Origin: Acidimicrobiaceae bacterium
GTDB lineage: Bacteria; Actinomycetota; Acidimicrobiia; Acidimicrobiales; RAAP-2
Reading direction: 5' to 3'
NCBI GenBank assembly: GCA_003161255.1
Contig: PMOQ01000019.1
Span: 1 to 64,000, forward strand
DNA length: 64,000 nt
Part shown: positions 3,773-18,891 of the stretch, piece by piece
Numbering within the stretch: position 1 is the first letter of the stretch
Layout: the number at the start of each line of letters is the position of its first letter
The notes under the pieces: generated by a model
What the model was told of the DNA's origin: nothing
Databases searched by the model: none
The model's input: the letters and a program-made list of their open reading frames with translations, nothing else
Made by a program: the position numbers and the translations under genes

Positions 3773-4144
3773 TCAGGCGTGACGACGGATGCGACGCGGC
3801 ACGACGTTGTCCAACAGGTCACCGATCCGTCGGTCGACCAACTCGTAACGGACGATCCGTCCGTCGCGTTGGGCGGTCACGATCCCGCTCGCACGCAGCA
3901 GTCGCAAGGCCTGGGACACCGCGGTGTCGTTCATGTCGGCCGCCATCGCCAGGTCGGTGACGCTGATTGGACCGGCGCGGGCGATGCAGATCAGGAGGGT
4001 CAGCCGACTGGGATCCCCGACCACTGCAAACCGCGCGGCCCATGTCGCGACGTTGTCCGGTTCCCCGAGAGCCGCGATGGCCCTGCAGACCCGCTCGTCG
4101 TCGAGGACCCGTCGGTTCCGGCGCTCAACCGGCACGAGATGCAC
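3773..4144 (-). CDS. ArsR-family winged-helix regulator
   Basis: A 123-residue ArsR/SmtB-type transcriptional repressor. FAVVGDPSRLTLLICIARAG is the hallmark first helix pair, and SVTDLAMAADMNDTAVSQAL (about residues 60-80) is the recognition-helix region. No clear Cys-based metal site (such as ELCVCDL) is present, so the inducer is unknown. The start is a GTG at 4144 with no strong ribosome-binding site. The C-terminal HA-TGA is followed in the same frame by the DUF664 remnant, suggesting a deletion fused the two loci end to end. Its upstream side faces the riboswitch-controlled cobalt transporter, so it could affect that gene. Confidence 0.85.
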   Translation of the reverse strand: MHLVPVERRNRRVLDDERVCRAIAALGEPDNVATWAARFAVVGDPSRLTLLICIARAGPISVTDLAMAADMNDTAVSQALRLLRASGIVTAQRDGRIVRYELVDRRIGDLLDNVVPRRIRRHA

Positions 4145-4227
4145 GGCCAGATCATGCCACGCAAGGCTCTATAGCTGCGCAGTTGGTCAGATTTGACCAT
4201 CCGGGGCCAGACGCGTACATTGGCCTG

Positions 4228-4400
4228 GCCGCGGTCGAAGGGTCGCGGTGGTGCAGTTGCAGCGAAGTCCGGTGAGATCCCGGCGCTGTCCCGCAACGGT
4301 GAAGCCCTTTCGAAGGGACGAGTCCGGTCGCCTGAACCGTGCCGCGAAGCCAGTCCTCGGAGGAAGGGCGGTTCGTGTGAGGAGACTCGTCGGACCTCGC
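4228..4400 (+). promoter_or_regulatory. Cobalamin (B12) riboswitch aptamer
   Basis: The leader of the cobalt/nickel transporter has the hallmark core of the cobalamin riboswitch. AAGTCCGGTGAGATCCCGG is followed by GCGCTGTCCCGCAACGGT (about 4283-4300), and then by the B12-box-like GAGTCCGGTCGCCTGAACC (about 4319-4337). The P-stem partners around the core can be paired by eye; the outer boundaries are approximate. Adenosylcobalamin binding would reduce expression of the downstream importer, which fits a cobalt-supply role for that gene. Confidence 0.88.
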
Positions 4401-4410
4401 AGGAACACTC

Positions 4411-4438
4411 TTCGTCCTCCGCTTGCTAGGAGGATGAA
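4411..4438 (+). promoter_or_regulatory. Shine-Dalgarno-sequestering hairpin (riboswitch expression platform)
   Basis: TTCGTCCTCC (4411-4420) and GGAGGATGAA (4429-4438) can form a 10-bp stem with one G-U pair around an 8-nt loop. The right arm contains most of the AGGAGG ribosome-binding site of the transporter gene that starts at 4441. This is the expected layout of a translational OFF switch. No terminator with a T-run is visible between aptamer and gene. Confidence 0.7.
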
Positions 4439-4440
4439 CA

Positions 4441-5589
4441 ATGGAAAGCCTGATCAGGCGGGTCGGACGTGTCCGGTCGGCGCTCACCCGGCGTGAATGG
4501 GGCCGATTCGGGGCCATGGCCCTCGCGGTCCTCTCGCTCAACGTCGCCGGATGGGGGATCTTCATCTTCGCGATCGCCCCCCACCACTTCAGGTTCAAGG
4601 GCCTCGGGCTCGGTGTCGGCGTCGCACTCACCGCATGGACGCTCGGAGCCCGGCACGCCTTCGACGCCGATCACATCTCTGCGATCGACAACACGACCCG
4701 AAAGCTGATGTCGGACGGGCGCCGGCCGCTCGGCACCGGGTTCTTCTTCGCCCTCGGGCACTCCTCGATCATCATGGTGGTGGGCGTCGGGCTGTCCATG
4801 GCGGCGAGAGCGGTCTTCGGCGCGGTGGTCACGCCCGAGTCCGGCTTCGAGACCTTGGGGGGGGTCGTCGGCACGTCCCTCGCCGCCACCTTCTTGTACC
4901 TGATCGCGGCGCTCAACCTGGTGGTGCTGGCCGGGATCTTCAAGGTGTTCCGGGGGATGCGCCAGGGGCTGTTCGACGAGGAGGAGCTGGAACGCCAGCT
5001 CCAGGCCCGCGGGCTGATGTGGCGTTTCTTCGGACGGTTCATGCGCTCGATCACGAAGACCTGGCACATGTACTTCGTCGGCCTCGTGTTCGGCATCGGT
5101 TTCGACACCGCGACCGAGGTCCTGCTTCTGGCGGCGACGGCCGCCGCCGCGACCGAGGGCCTGCCGTGGTTCGCAGTGCTGTCGCTGCCGTTGTTGTTCG
5201 CCGGCGGGATGACCCTCTTCGACACCATCGACGGGTGCTTCATGAACTTCGCCTACGGGTGGGCGTTCGCCCGCCCGGTCCGCAAGGTCTATTACAACCT
5301 CGTCATCACCGGTCTTTCGATCGCCGTGGCATTCCTCATCGGCACCATCGAGATCTTCGGCCTCATCTCCGATGAGCTCCACATCCACGGTGGCTTCTGG
5401 GACTTCATGTCGAACTTCGACATCAATCGGGCCGGGTTTGCGATCGCCGGCCTCTTCGTCGCGGTCTGGGCGGTTGCGCTCTGCTACTGGAGGATCGGCA
5501 AGGTGGAGTCCAGGTGGGCGAGCGCGTCCTTGCTGGACGGTGGCGGCGGCGAAGCGGTGATGGTCAGCCGCGACGGCCCGGCCGGCTGA
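4441..5589 (+). CDS. NiCoT-family nickel/cobalt transporter, B12-riboswitch controlled
   Basis: A 382-residue HoxN/NicT/NhlF-type secondary transporter for Ni2+/Co2+ uptake at the inner membrane. The signature HAFDADHISAIDNTTRK (about residues 73-89) is the metal-selecting helix II motif. Further family motifs are FFALGHSS, LGF-like FGIGFDTATEV and GMTLFDTIDGCFMNFAYGWA, within about eight hydrophobic segments. The ATG at 4441 has AGGAGG 7 nt upstream. The riboswitch in the leader indicates that cobalt for B12 is the physiological cargo. A second NiCoT of the same length is encoded at 17743-18891 under different control. Confidence 0.95.
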   Translation: MESLIRRVGRVRSALTRREWGRFGAMALAVLSLNVAGWGIFIFAIAPHHFRFKGLGLGVGVALTAWTLGARHAFDADHISAIDNTTRKLMSDGRRPLGTGFFFALGHSSIIMVVGVGLSMAARAVFGAVVTPESGFETLGGVVGTSLAATFLYLIAALNLVVLAGIFKVFRGMRQGLFDEEELERQLQARGLMWRFFGRFMRSITKTWHMYFVGLVFGIGFDTATEVLLLAATAAAATEGLPWFAVLSLPLLFAGGMTLFDTIDGCFMNFAYGWAFARPVRKVYYNLVITGLSIAVAFLIGTIEIFGLISDELHIHGGFWDFMSNFDINRAGFAIAGLFVAVWAVALCYWRIGKVESRWASASLLDGGGGEAVMVSRDGPAG

Positions 5590-16401: not shown

Positions 16402-16893
16402 TCAGGCGGTCGGAGTGGTGTGGGTTCCTGCGCTGCGACAAGCAGAACACCGACCTAGCACCGCGAAGTGGTGCGGGTTGACGTCAAACCCGAAACGCGA
16501 CCGGGCGGTCCGAGACAGGCCCGCGAAGAGCTCGGTGGGCGCCTCGATCGTGGCGCCGCACTCCTCACAGACCAGGTGTCCGTGCGCCCCGGCTGCCAGG
16601 TGGTACGTCGCGGGGCCATGCCCGAGATGCGAATGGACGACCACCCCGAGGCGTTCCAGTTCGTCGAGGTTTCGGTAGATGGTCGATATGTGAATGTCCG
16701 GTGCCTGGAGCTGGACAGCCGTGGCAAGCTCCTCCGCCGTGTGATGGCCCTCGACCTCGAACAGGACGCGCAGGAGGAAACGGCGCGACGAGGTAACTCG
16801 CCCGCCGTGTTTGCGTACCAGGGCTAGAGCACCCTCCACCGTGTTGGGGTCCTCCGCCAGATCAACGGCCGGCTGGTCGTGTGGCGTGCTCAC
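16402..16893 (-). CDS. Fur-family metalloregulator (Zur-like)
   Basis: A 163-residue Fur-superfamily repressor. HHTAEELATAV and ISTIYRNLDELERLGVV form the winged helix (about residues 50-85). HGHLVCEECG and LGRCSACR give two CxxC pairs for the structural zinc site, and HSHLGHGPATYHL holds regulatory-site His residues. Fur, Zur and Nur members share these features, so the metal is not certain. Its location behind an NmtR-like sensor and a His-rich peptide favours Zn or Ni. The start is taken as the GTG at 16893; an in-frame ATG at 16956 would add an Arg-rich tail not typical of the family. Confidence 0.85.
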   Translation of the reverse strand: MSTPHDQPAVDLAEDPNTVEGALALVRKHGGRVTSSRRFLLRVLFEVEGHHTAEELATAVQLQAPDIHISTIYRNLDELERLGVVVHSHLGHGPATYHLAAGAHGHLVCEECGATIEAPTELFAGLSRTARSRFGFDVNPHHFAVLGRCSACRSAGTHTTPTA

Positions 16894-16986
16894 GGCGTCA
16901 TCGTACCGAGCACGCCATCGCGACCAGCGTGACGACGTGGCTGGATTCGGCATCATTCGGACACCCCGAGGAAGGGTCCGAGCTGT

Positions 16987-17049
16987 GCAACCGGTCTTTC
17001 GACGGACGGTGGTGTCTTGGCGGGGTCCGTCGAGGGACCGGCCGGTTGC
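16987..17049. terminator. Long imperfect hairpin after the His-rich gene
   Basis: GCAACCGGTC-TTT-CGACGGAC (16987-17007) pairs with GTCCGTCG-AGG-GACC and the flanking CCGGTTGC (about 17026-17049). The result is a stem of about 18 bp, interrupted by a 3-nt internal loop and a 4-nt bulge, with a loop of roughly 18 nt. The hairpin ends exactly at the stop codon of the His-rich gene on the minus strand. There is no T-run, so it may act as a Rho-dependent terminator, an RNA-stability element or an attenuator before the Fur-like gene. Confidence 0.45.
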
Positions 17050-17258
17050 TACGCGTGCTCGTGCTCGTGGTGATCCTCAAGGCTGACCTCGTGAACGTGC
17101 TCGTGCGCGTGGCCATCGTCCCCGTGAGGGTGCTCGTGGGTGACGTGCTCATGCTCGTGGCTGTCATGGGGGTGCGCGTGCGCATGGTCATGATGAGGGT
17201 GCTCGTGGTCGTGTGGTTCTTGGTGATCGTGCTCAGTGTTCACTTGCTTTCCTTTCAT
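17049..17258 (-). CDS. Small histidine-rich metal-binding protein
   Basis: A 69-residue peptide with 25 His and many Asp/Glu, arranged as HxH and HDH repeats (for example EHDHQEPHDHEHPHHDHAHA). It ends in HHEHEHA. There is no signal peptide or membrane segment and no recognisable domain. It resembles in style the His-rich tails and storage peptides (Hpn, HypB or SlyD tails) that hold Ni, Co or Zn. Its ATG overlaps the stop of the NmtR-like gene (ATGA), so it should be translated with that sensor. The strong coupling and composition argue that it is real rather than a chance open frame. Confidence 0.7.
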   Translation of the reverse strand: MKGKQVNTEHDHQEPHDHEHPHHDHAHAHPHDSHEHEHVTHEHPHGDDGHAHEHVHEVSLEDHHEHEHA

Positions 17259-17629
17259 GTCGGTATCCGAGAAATGGTTCCGGCGTGGCGGTGGCCCCGG
17301 CCGTCGCCTGCCACGTGATCCATGTGTCGAAGGGCTTCGTCGAGCAGGGCAGCGACGTGTGAGTCATAGAGGCCGTAAACGACGTGTCGGCCAGTGCGGG
17401 TCCCGACGACGAATCCGAGATCCCGGAGCACCCGCAGCTGATGCGAGACCGCGGGTTGTTCCATCTCAACCTCGGCGCTGAGTTCACCAACCGAGCACGA
17501 CCCGGCGCGCAGTCGGGCCAGTATCCGAACCCGACTCGCCGTCGAAAGAACCGCCATCACGCGGGCGACTTCCTGTGCCGCCTCCTGGGAGAGCGGGCTG
17601 CTGACCTCGGGATGGTTCGGCTCTCCCAT
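17255..17629 (-). CDS. ArsR/SmtB nickel-cobalt sensor, NmtR-like
   Basis: A 124-residue metal-responsive repressor closely resembling mycobacterial NmtR. MEQPAVSHQLRVLRDLGFVV is the recognition-helix block. LYDSHVAALLDEALRHMDHV keeps the Asp/His/His/His pattern of the alpha-5 Ni/Co site, and a His-containing tail (GRGHRHAG) follows, as in NmtR. The ATG at 17629 is chosen because it leaves the palindrome at 17648-17657 outside the gene. A GTG at 17659 would add ten residues (with HICACKHAH). It is divergent from the second NiCoT gene, its likely target. Confidence 0.9.
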   Translation of the reverse strand: MGEPNHPEVSSPLSQEAAQEVARVMAVLSTASRVRILARLRAGSCSVGELSAEVEMEQPAVSHQLRVLRDLGFVVGTRTGRHVVYGLYDSHVAALLDEALRHMDHVAGDGRGHRHAGTISRIPT

Positions 17630-17640
17630 GTGGGCATGTT

Positions 17641-17662
17641 TACATGCGCATATATGCACGTC
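17641..17662. promoter_or_regulatory. Candidate NmtR operator
   Basis: A perfect 10-bp palindrome GCATATATGC (17648-17657) lies within the AT-rich stretch TACATGCGCATATATGCACG, between the divergent nmtR-like and NiCoT genes. ArsR/SmtB proteins bind AT-rich imperfect palindromes of this kind overlapping promoters, so this is the best operator candidate for both genes. Confidence 0.5.
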
Positions 17663-17742
17663 AAGCGGCGTGGGGACTTACTGCGCCTCAGTCGCAATTG
17701 GGTTAGATTTCTATGAAGGAGCGACTCCAAAGGAAAGCCCGA

Positions 17743-18891
17743 GTGACCGACTCCATCGTCTACGAAACGATCCCCCAATCCCGCCTGGCCAAGCTCCGCA
17801 ATGGGCTCACGCCGCAGGAGTGGCTGCGGGTCGGGGGGATGGCGCTCGCGATCGTCTCGCTCAACGTCGTCGGCTGGGGACTGTTGGCTGCAGCGGTCGG
17901 CCACCACTTCCACATCTCGAAAACCGGACTGTTCGGGTTCGGAACGGGGGTCCTGGCGTACACACTCGGCATGCGGCACGCGTTCGACGCCGATCACATA
18001 GCCGCCATCGACAACACGACGAGGAAGCTCGTCAACGACGGCAAGCGACCCCTGAGCGTCGGGTTCTTCTTTTCGCTTGGGCACTCGACCGTCGTGTTCG
18101 TGCTCGCCGTGTTCCTGAACTTCGGCATCCGGGCCCTCGACGCACAGGTGGGGGACAACTCGTCCGCTCTCCACAAGACCACCAACGTCATCGGGACCTC
18201 GGTTTCGGGCGGCTTTCTCTACCTGATTGCTGCGCTCAACCTCATCGTGATGATCGGCATCGTGAAGGTCTACCGGGAGATGAAATCGGGGCGATACGAC
18301 AACGACGAGCTCGAGCGGCAACTGAGCAACCGTGGCCTGATGAACCGGTTCTTCGGCGGCTACGCGAAGCGGATCGACGCGCCATGGAAGATCTACCCGG
18401 TCGGCATCCTTTTCGGCCTCGGGTTCGACACCGCCACCGAGGTTGGCCTCCTCGTCCTCGCCGGGACCGCGGTGGCCGGCGGCCTGCCGTTCTACGCGAT
18501 CCTGTCGCTGCCGATTCTCTTCGCCGCCGGGATGAGCCTGTTCGACGCGCTGGACGGCTGCTTCATGAACTTCGCCTACGACTGGGCGTTCGCGAAACCC
18601 ATCCGGAAGGTCTTCTACAACCTGACCATCACCGGCCTCTCGGTCTTTGTCGCCTTCTTCATCGGCACCATCGAGATCCTCAGCCTGGTCGGGCAGGAGG
18701 CGAACCTGAACGACCCCTTCTTCAAGTTCGTCCAAGGCTTCAACATCAACACGGCGGGGTTTGCCATCGTCGGGGCGTTCGTCGCGACGTGGGTCGTCGC
18801 CCTCCTCTACTGGCGCTTGGCCAATGTCGAGGCGAAGTGGGACGCCAAGATGCTGCACCGTCAGTCCGCAGAGCGGGTCATGACCGGCTGA
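17743..18891 (+). CDS. NiCoT-family nickel/cobalt transporter, probably NmtR-controlled
   Basis: A 382-residue HoxN/NicT-type permease, paralogous to the one at 4441-5589. It has the signature HAFDADHIAAIDNTTRK, then FFSLGHSTVVFV, FGLGFDTATEV and DALDGCFMNFAYDWAFAK. The GTG at 17743 is chosen because AGGAAAG lies about 6 nt upstream; an ATG at 17713 in the same frame has no such site and would add ten residues. It is divergent from the NmtR-like sensor gene across a short region with a palindrome. Control by a Ni/Co sensor rather than by B12 suggests nickel, or general Ni/Co, supply. No riboswitch is seen here. Confidence 0.93.
   Translation: MTDSIVYETIPQSRLAKLRNGLTPQEWLRVGGMALAIVSLNVVGWGLLAAAVGHHFHISKTGLFGFGTGVLAYTLGMRHAFDADHIAAIDNTTRKLVNDGKRPLSVGFFFSLGHSTVVFVLAVFLNFGIRALDAQVGDNSSALHKTTNVIGTSVSGGFLYLIAALNLIVMIGIVKVYREMKSGRYDNDELERQLSNRGLMNRFFGGYAKRIDAPWKIYPVGILFGLGFDTATEVGLLVLAGTAVAGGLPFYAILSLPILFAAGMSLFDALDGCFMNFAYDWAFAKPIRKVFYNLTITGLSVFVAFFIGTIEILSLVGQEANLNDPFFKFVQGFNINTAGFAIVGAFVATWVVALLYWRLANVEAKWDAKMLHRQSAERVMTG

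What the first reader, a model, noticed from the sequence alone, without database searches (positions are those of the whole stretch)
16402..18891. NmtR-like sensor, 25-His peptide and Fur-like regulator facing a NiCoT importer
An NmtR-type Ni/Co sensor is translationally coupled (ATGA) to a 69-residue peptide with 25 His, followed by a Fur-superfamily gene, and divergent from a NiCoT permease with a palindrome between. Sensor, buffer, second metalloregulator and importer in one block would be a compact metal-homeostasis module. Published NmtR systems control an efflux ATPase rather than an uptake permease, and I know of no described case with a His-rich peptide as the coupled second gene.
Basis: partly seen in the sequence, partly recalled or inferred. 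Interest (0 to 1): 0.62.

Follow-up and report, generated by a model that had tools for sequence, protein, structure and literature searches.

The report
Nickel-control cassette with His-rich peptide
Next to a nickel-import gene in a soil actinobacterium lie two predicted nickel sensors and a tiny protein that is over a third histidine; the tiny protein belongs to a rare, apparently undescribed family that keeps turning up beside nickel sensors and transporters in unrelated actinobacteria, so it is probably a nickel buffer or carrier.

Summary
Window 16402-18891 encodes an NmtR-like ArsR sensor, a 64-69-aa peptide with 25 His, a Fur-family regulator closest to Streptomyces Nur, and a divergent NicT-type NiCoT. 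The peptide is not a chance frame: it is under purifying selection (dN 0.013, dS 0.211), and a profile finds relatives with about 20 fixed-spacing histidines in Thermoleophilia, Mycobacteriaceae and one further actinobacterial class (about 2% of sampled genomes). No Pfam, NCBIfam or PDB match and no paper was found. In nine of ten distinct settings it sits beside a Ni/Co sensor (NmtR, KmtR), a Fur gene, or a Ni/Co or Znu-type transporter. The palindrome is an NmtR-type operator (ACATG-N10-CATGT) overlapping the sensor's own promoter; a separate Nur-box-like site lies at the NicT promoter. Most likely Ni-loaded Nur shuts NicT, while Ni releases NmtR and induces NmtR plus the peptide, which binds Ni. 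NmtR control of NicT is not supported. The host has Ni-SOD, a plausible nickel client. Metal, binding and regulation are inferred, not measured. A new variant of a known kind, containing an undescribed His-rich peptide family.

The parts
16402..16893 (-). Nur-like Fur-family regulator, start GTG 16893 (longer ORF to 16956 less likely)
   Evidence: PF01475 73.8 bits; best solved match 3eyy E 2.6e-30; start conserved in G001; His at Nur positions 33, 70, 72, 88, 90, 126
16991..17041 (-). Hairpin downstream of the peptide gene, possible transcript end
   Evidence: z -3.97 in the window, -2.10 in G001; no T-run, not called by the terminator scan
17049..17243 (-). His-rich peptide, 64 aa from GTG 17243 (69 aa from ATG 17258)
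   Evidence: 25 His; family alignment; dN 0.013, dS 0.211; no Pfam, NCBIfam or PDB match
17255..17629 (-). NmtR-like ArsR sensor, start ATG 17629
   Evidence: 2lkp E 2.5e-29; Asp91, His93, His104, His107 equivalents kept; clade with other peptide-linked sensors 99/91
17636..17664 (-). Putative sensor promoter: TTGACG (17664-17659), 17-nt spacer, AAACAT (17641-17636)
   Evidence: Read by eye; same layout in L033, L034, L035; not called by the strict scan
17642..17661 (.). NmtR-type operator ACATG-N10-CATGT (one mismatch)
   Evidence: 49 of 77 NmtR loci carry it upstream at up to 1 mismatch, 0 in 568 kb of flanks
17681..17697 (.). Nur-box-like site cTGCgc-CTCAG-tcGCAA
   Evidence: Core of tTGCaa-N5-ttGCAA (PMC3919588); core kept in G001; bare pattern not rare
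17704..17709 (+). TAGATT, -10-like hexamer of NicT
   Evidence: Sequence read by eye; TAGGTT in G001
17743..18891 (+). NicT-type NiCoT permease, likely start GTG 17743
   Evidence: NF052500 520 bits, cut-off 450; PF03824 E 6.9e-97; dN 0.006, dS 0.197

Best explanation
A nickel homeostasis cassette with two opposite switches. When nickel is scarce, the Nur-like protein is off DNA and NicT imports Ni (perhaps also Co), while the NmtR-like protein sits on ACATG-N10-CATGT and keeps its own promoter shut. When nickel is ample, Ni-loaded Nur binds the box at the NicT promoter and stops import, and Ni releases NmtR, so NmtR and the His-rich peptide are made. The peptide binds the surplus Ni as a cytosolic buffer, possibly handing it to nickel enzymes (Ni-SOD in this genome, hydrogenase in the other hosts). 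Shown here: gene identities, operator layout, peptide conservation and its repeated neighbourhood. Inferred: metal identity, Ni binding by the peptide, and the direction of each switch (taken from characterised NmtR and Nur).
For: Sensor nearest to NmtR with all four alpha-5 ligands; Fur protein nearest to Nur with the HxH and other His positions; NicT above cut-off; operator layout shared by 49 of 77 NmtR loci and none in flanks, placed inside the sensor promoter in four loci; Nur-box core at the NicT promoter, kept in G001; peptide family in nine of ten settings beside Ni/Co sensors, Fur genes or metal transporters, twice with HypB/HypF; Ni-SOD in G000 and G001; hydrogenase in 13 other peptide-bearing genomes. 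Direction of switches from the review PMC7055735.
Against: No experiment on any of these genes. His3 of NmtR is not kept (Glu or Gly at that position); one of the presumed four M-site His of Nur is not aligned. The Nur-box match is to the core only and the bare pattern is common. Three settings carry Znu-type ABC genes usually linked to Zn or Mn. The hydrogenase association has no background rate. No Nur-box-like site was found near sodN.
Confidence: 0.55

Rival explanations
1. The peptide is a nickel carrier for enzyme maturation rather than a detoxifying buffer: it takes Ni from the importer and passes it to HypB/HypA or to Ni-SOD, and the sensor link only sets its amount.
For: HypB/HypF genes next to the peptide in G640 and G433; hydrogenase in 13 other hosts, Ni-SOD in G000 and G001; several settings lack any NmtR or KmtR gene nearby. 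Helicobacter Hpn does both (PMC4671568).
Against: Linked most often to sensors of metal excess (NmtR, KmtR); only two settings have hyp genes adjacent; no folded domain beyond the His repeat is evident.
Confidence: 0.22
2. The cassette serves zinc or cobalt rather than nickel: the peptide is a general divalent-metal buffer and the sensors respond to Zn or Co.
For: ZnuABC-like genes beside the peptide in G640, G433 and G513; CbiM-type transporters in G159 and G326; NiCoT and NmtR also handle Co; His-rich peptides bind Zn well.
Against: NmtR and Nur are the closest characterised sensors; the window's other NiCoT (4441-5589) follows a B12-riboswitch-like RNA and may be the Co importer, leaving the focal one for Ni; hyp genes, hydrogenase and Ni-SOD point to Ni.
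Confidence: 0.17
3. The His-rich frame is a non-functional or unexpressed stretch of repetitive codons.
For: Low-complexity sequence; a His-rich profile can score compositional look-alikes.
Against: dN/dS about 0.06; conserved His spacing and C-terminal motif across classes; Shine-Dalgarno-like sequence before most starts; repeated neighbourhood.
Confidence: 0.03

Closest known systems
M. tuberculosis NmtR with its P-type ATPase target (nmt operon)
   Same: ArsR-family sensor with the same alpha-5 ligands; operator layout like that of most NmtR homologues
   Different: No efflux ATPase nearby; faces an importer; a His-rich peptide follows; His3 not kept; separate clade
S. coelicolor Nur and its nickel regulon (sodF, nikABCDE)
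   Same: Nearest solved relative of the Fur gene; Ni-SOD also in the genome; Nur-box-like site at a Ni importer
   Different: Importer is a NiCoT, not NikABCDE; no box found near sodN; one presumed M-site His not aligned
NicT/HoxN NiCoT permeases
   Same: Above the NicT equivalog cut-off, RHAFDADH signature
   Different: Nothing unusual in the permease itself
Helicobacter Hpn and Hpn-2 (His-rich Ni storage proteins)
   Same: Small, His-rich, proposed Ni buffer and carrier near nickel enzymes or their maturation
   Different: Different His spacing, Asp/Glu between the His, no known homology, linked to a metal sensor gene; Hpn is from gastric Helicobacter
M. tuberculosis KmtR
   Same: In several mycobacterial genomes the kmtR homologue is followed by a member of the same peptide family
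   Different: KmtR is another ArsR subfamily; its reported target is a CDF exporter (PMC7055735)

Membership tests
NmtR (ArsR/SmtB Ni/Co sensor) | ArsR fold and closest match to NmtR | tested here: met
   PF01022 E 1.4e-13; 2lkp E 2.5e-29, next 2.9e-17
NmtR (ArsR/SmtB Ni/Co sensor) | Asp91, His93, His104, His107 ligands | tested here: met
   D89, H91, H102, H105 of the window protein
NmtR (ArsR/SmtB Ni/Co sensor) | N-terminal ligand His3 | tested here: not met
   Gly2 present, position 3 is Glu (window) or Gly (G001) with His at 6; so filed as NmtR-like, not as NmtR
NmtR (ArsR/SmtB Ni/Co sensor) | Adjacent efflux P-type ATPase | tested here: not met
   None beside the gene in the window; most other NmtR loci have one
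NmtR (ArsR/SmtB Ni/Co sensor) | DNA release by Ni or Co | not testable with these tools
   Needs binding assays
Nur (Ni-specific Fur) | Fur fold, closest to Nur | tested here: met
   PF01475; 3eyy 2.6e-30 against 6.6e-16 for the next
Nur (Ni-specific Fur) | Ni-site and M-site histidines (residue numbers from my own knowledge: 70, 72, 126; 33, 86, 88, 90) | tested here: inconclusive
   70, 72, 126, 33, 88, 90 kept; 86 falls at a gap
Nur (Ni-specific Fur) | Ni-dependent binding to a Nur box | not testable with these tools
   Box-like core at 17681-17697 only
NiCoT / NicT permease | NicT profile over cut-off | tested here: met
   NF052500 520.4 bits, cut-off 450
Hpn-type His-rich Ni storage protein | Sequence homology to Hpn | not tested
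   No Pfam, NCBIfam or PDB match for the family; no direct comparison made; not claimed as a homologue
Hpn-type His-rich Ni storage protein | Binds and stores Ni | not testable with these tools
   Composition and context only

The most novel reading that the evidence does not exclude
A previously undescribed family of small His-rich nickel buffer or carrier peptides, spread patchily across actinobacterial classes and recruited to different Ni/Co sensors (NmtR, KmtR, Fur-type) and different importers (NiCoT, ECF, Znu-type ABC).
Probability: 0.55. Interest if true: 0.65.

Novelty: new variant of a known kind. Interest (0 to 1): 0.55.

Why it matters
Dedicated His-rich nickel storage proteins are best known from gastric Helicobacter. 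A sensor-linked family in soil actinobacteria and mycobacteria would show that such peptides have a wider and modular use, give an easily tested target for nickel supply to hydrogenases and Ni-SOD, and offer a two-switch circuit (close the importer, make the buffer) readable from one short region.

Tried and rejected
Viral contigs: no relative of the sensor. Direct NmtR control of NicT: rejected as the main reading because the operator overlaps only the sensor promoter. ATG at 17713 as NicT start and GTG at 17659 as sensor start: rejected (in-frame stop in G001; the latter lies inside the putative -35). A Nur-box-like site near sodN was not found. Other genome matches to the operator pattern in G000 and G001 that I read did not lie at evident metal genes. 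[NiFe]-hydrogenase in the window genome: none found, in an assembly estimated 87% complete. I first read the ATGA overlap as not conserved at all; L034 and L035 show that it is conserved there.

Full report
OBSERVATION. The sensor (17255-17629, minus) is nearest to M. tuberculosis NmtR among solved structures (2lkp, E 2.5e-29). The Fur-family protein is nearest to S. coelicolor Nur (3eyy, E 2.6e-30; next 6.6e-16). The permease passes the NCBIfam NicT cut-off (520 against 450 bits). The peptide (17049-17258, minus) has 25 His in 69 residues and matches nothing in Pfam or NCBIfam.

GENE STARTS. Comparison with the only close relative, genome G001 (record title: Acidimicrobiaceae bacterium isolate palsa_749), moves three starts. 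The peptide's ATG (overlapping the sensor's TGA) is CTG in G001 and a base is missing before the next start, so the conserved start is GTG 17243, 64 aa, behind AAAGGA. The ATGA overlap is nevertheless present in two Solirubrobacteraceae loci, so close coupling is the common state. NicT starts most likely at GTG 17743 and the Nur-like gene at GTG 16893.

THE PEPTIDE IS A FAMILY. Between window and G001 the peptide gene has dN 0.013 and dS 0.211. The NmtR search found peptide genes behind NmtR-like sensors in two Solirubrobacteraceae and behind a KmtR homologue in Mycobacterium sp. PO1. A profile of five of these, then of 11 members, found 8 of 396 sampled Actinomycetota genomes, 6 of 299 genomes of the class of G159, which holds the Solirubrobacteraceae, 7 of 251 of the mycobacterial family, all in one genus, and 2 of 39 genomes of a further class. 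Among 61 relatives of the window genome only the window genome and G001 have clear members (one more hit is partial and weak). Members have about 20 histidines at fixed spacing, a nearly invariant Glu at position 14, and a C-terminal gLEd.H.H.H motif. E-values of such a biased profile are inflated, so I rely on spacing and context. No solved protein matches the profile. Full-text searches found no description, within the limits of the open-licence library. Occurrence outside Actinomycetota was not tested.

CONTEXT. Ten distinct settings were read: (1) window and G001, NmtR-peptide, Nur, NicT; (2) L034/G640, ZnuABC-Fur-NmtR-peptide with HypF and a HypB-like gene near; (3) L035/G159, CbiM-type ECF transporter genes opposite NmtR-peptide; (4) G433, HypB, HypF, peptide, ZnuABC, Fur; (5) G513, ZnuABC, peptide, Fur, NicO-like gene; (6) G706, NicT-peptide; (7) G692, NicO-like gene next to the peptide; (8) G326, Fur and peptide divergent, CbiM/Q/O-type genes and a second Fur near; (9) G273, MoxR/CoxE-like genes only; (10) mycobacteria, kmtR-peptide (in G941 no kmtR was detected). 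Nine of ten have a Ni/Co sensor, Fur gene or metal transporter adjacent. The four NmtR proteins linked to the peptide form one clade (99/91). [NiFe]-hydrogenase large subunit is clear in 13 peptide-bearing genomes outside the window genus (G842 only weak) and absent in G000 and G001; the latter two have Ni-SOD with its HCDLPCGVYD hook. I have no background rate for hydrogenase in genomes without the peptide.

REGULATORY DNA. The same layout lies upstream of 49 of 77 NmtR loci, most of which have a P-type ATPase gene, and never in 568 kb of their flanks, at up to one mismatch. In all four peptide-linked loci it fills the space between TTGAC(A/G) and a weak -10, and the sensor's ATG follows 6-8 nt later, which suggests a leaderless mRNA (the promoter reading is by eye and the strict scan did not call it). 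At NicT, TGCGCCTCAGTCGCAA (17682-17697) fits the core of the published Nur box tTGCaa-N5-ttGCAA (PMC3919588) and the core is kept in G001; the bare pattern is not rare, so the support is position and conservation. A stable hairpin lies between peptide and Nur gene in both genomes.

MECHANISM. Nur is reported to repress uptake when Ni-bound and NmtR to be released by Ni (PMC7055735). Applied here: low Ni gives NicT on and the sensor-peptide unit off; high Ni gives NicT off and NmtR plus peptide on. This removes the paradox of a Ni-released repressor controlling an importer. The peptide would then hold Ni, like Helicobacter Hpn (PMC4671568), and may pass it on. Steps shown: genes, sites, conservation, context. 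Steps inferred: metal, binding, direction.

VERDICT. The site is a nickel homeostasis cassette with an undescribed His-rich peptide family; a new variant of a known kind. The least certain points are the metal (Ni over Co or Zn), the Nur box, and whether the peptide stores or delivers.

Noticed in passing
window 4243-5589 (+): A second NiCoT gene (4441-5589, NF052500 472 bits, 56% identical to the focal one) preceded by an AdoCbl-riboswitch-like RNA (RF01482, 40.9 bits, below the gathering score of 50, E 2.8e-6). It may be the cobalt importer for B12, leaving the focal gene for nickel.
   Followed up: partly
window 3773-4162 (-): An ArsR-like regulator gene lies divergent and upstream of the riboswitch-linked NiCoT, a second sensor-facing-importer pair in the same window.
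   Followed up: no
L158 (G000:C10), L159 (G001:C42): Ni-SOD gene next to a signal-peptidase-like gene in both genomes that carry the window cassette.
   Followed up: partly
L139 5794-8328; L140 13497-15023: MoxR-like and CoxE-like (VWA) genes lie next to or near the peptide gene in two genomes of one family; link to the peptide unknown.
   Followed up: no
L144 (G941:C55): A mycobacterial peptide locus where kmtR was not detected between the deaminase gene and the peptide gene.
   Followed up: no
L082 1306-1941: In Mycobacterium sp. PO1 a kmtR-peptide pair lies next to an NmtR gene with a P-type ATPase gene.
   Followed up: partly
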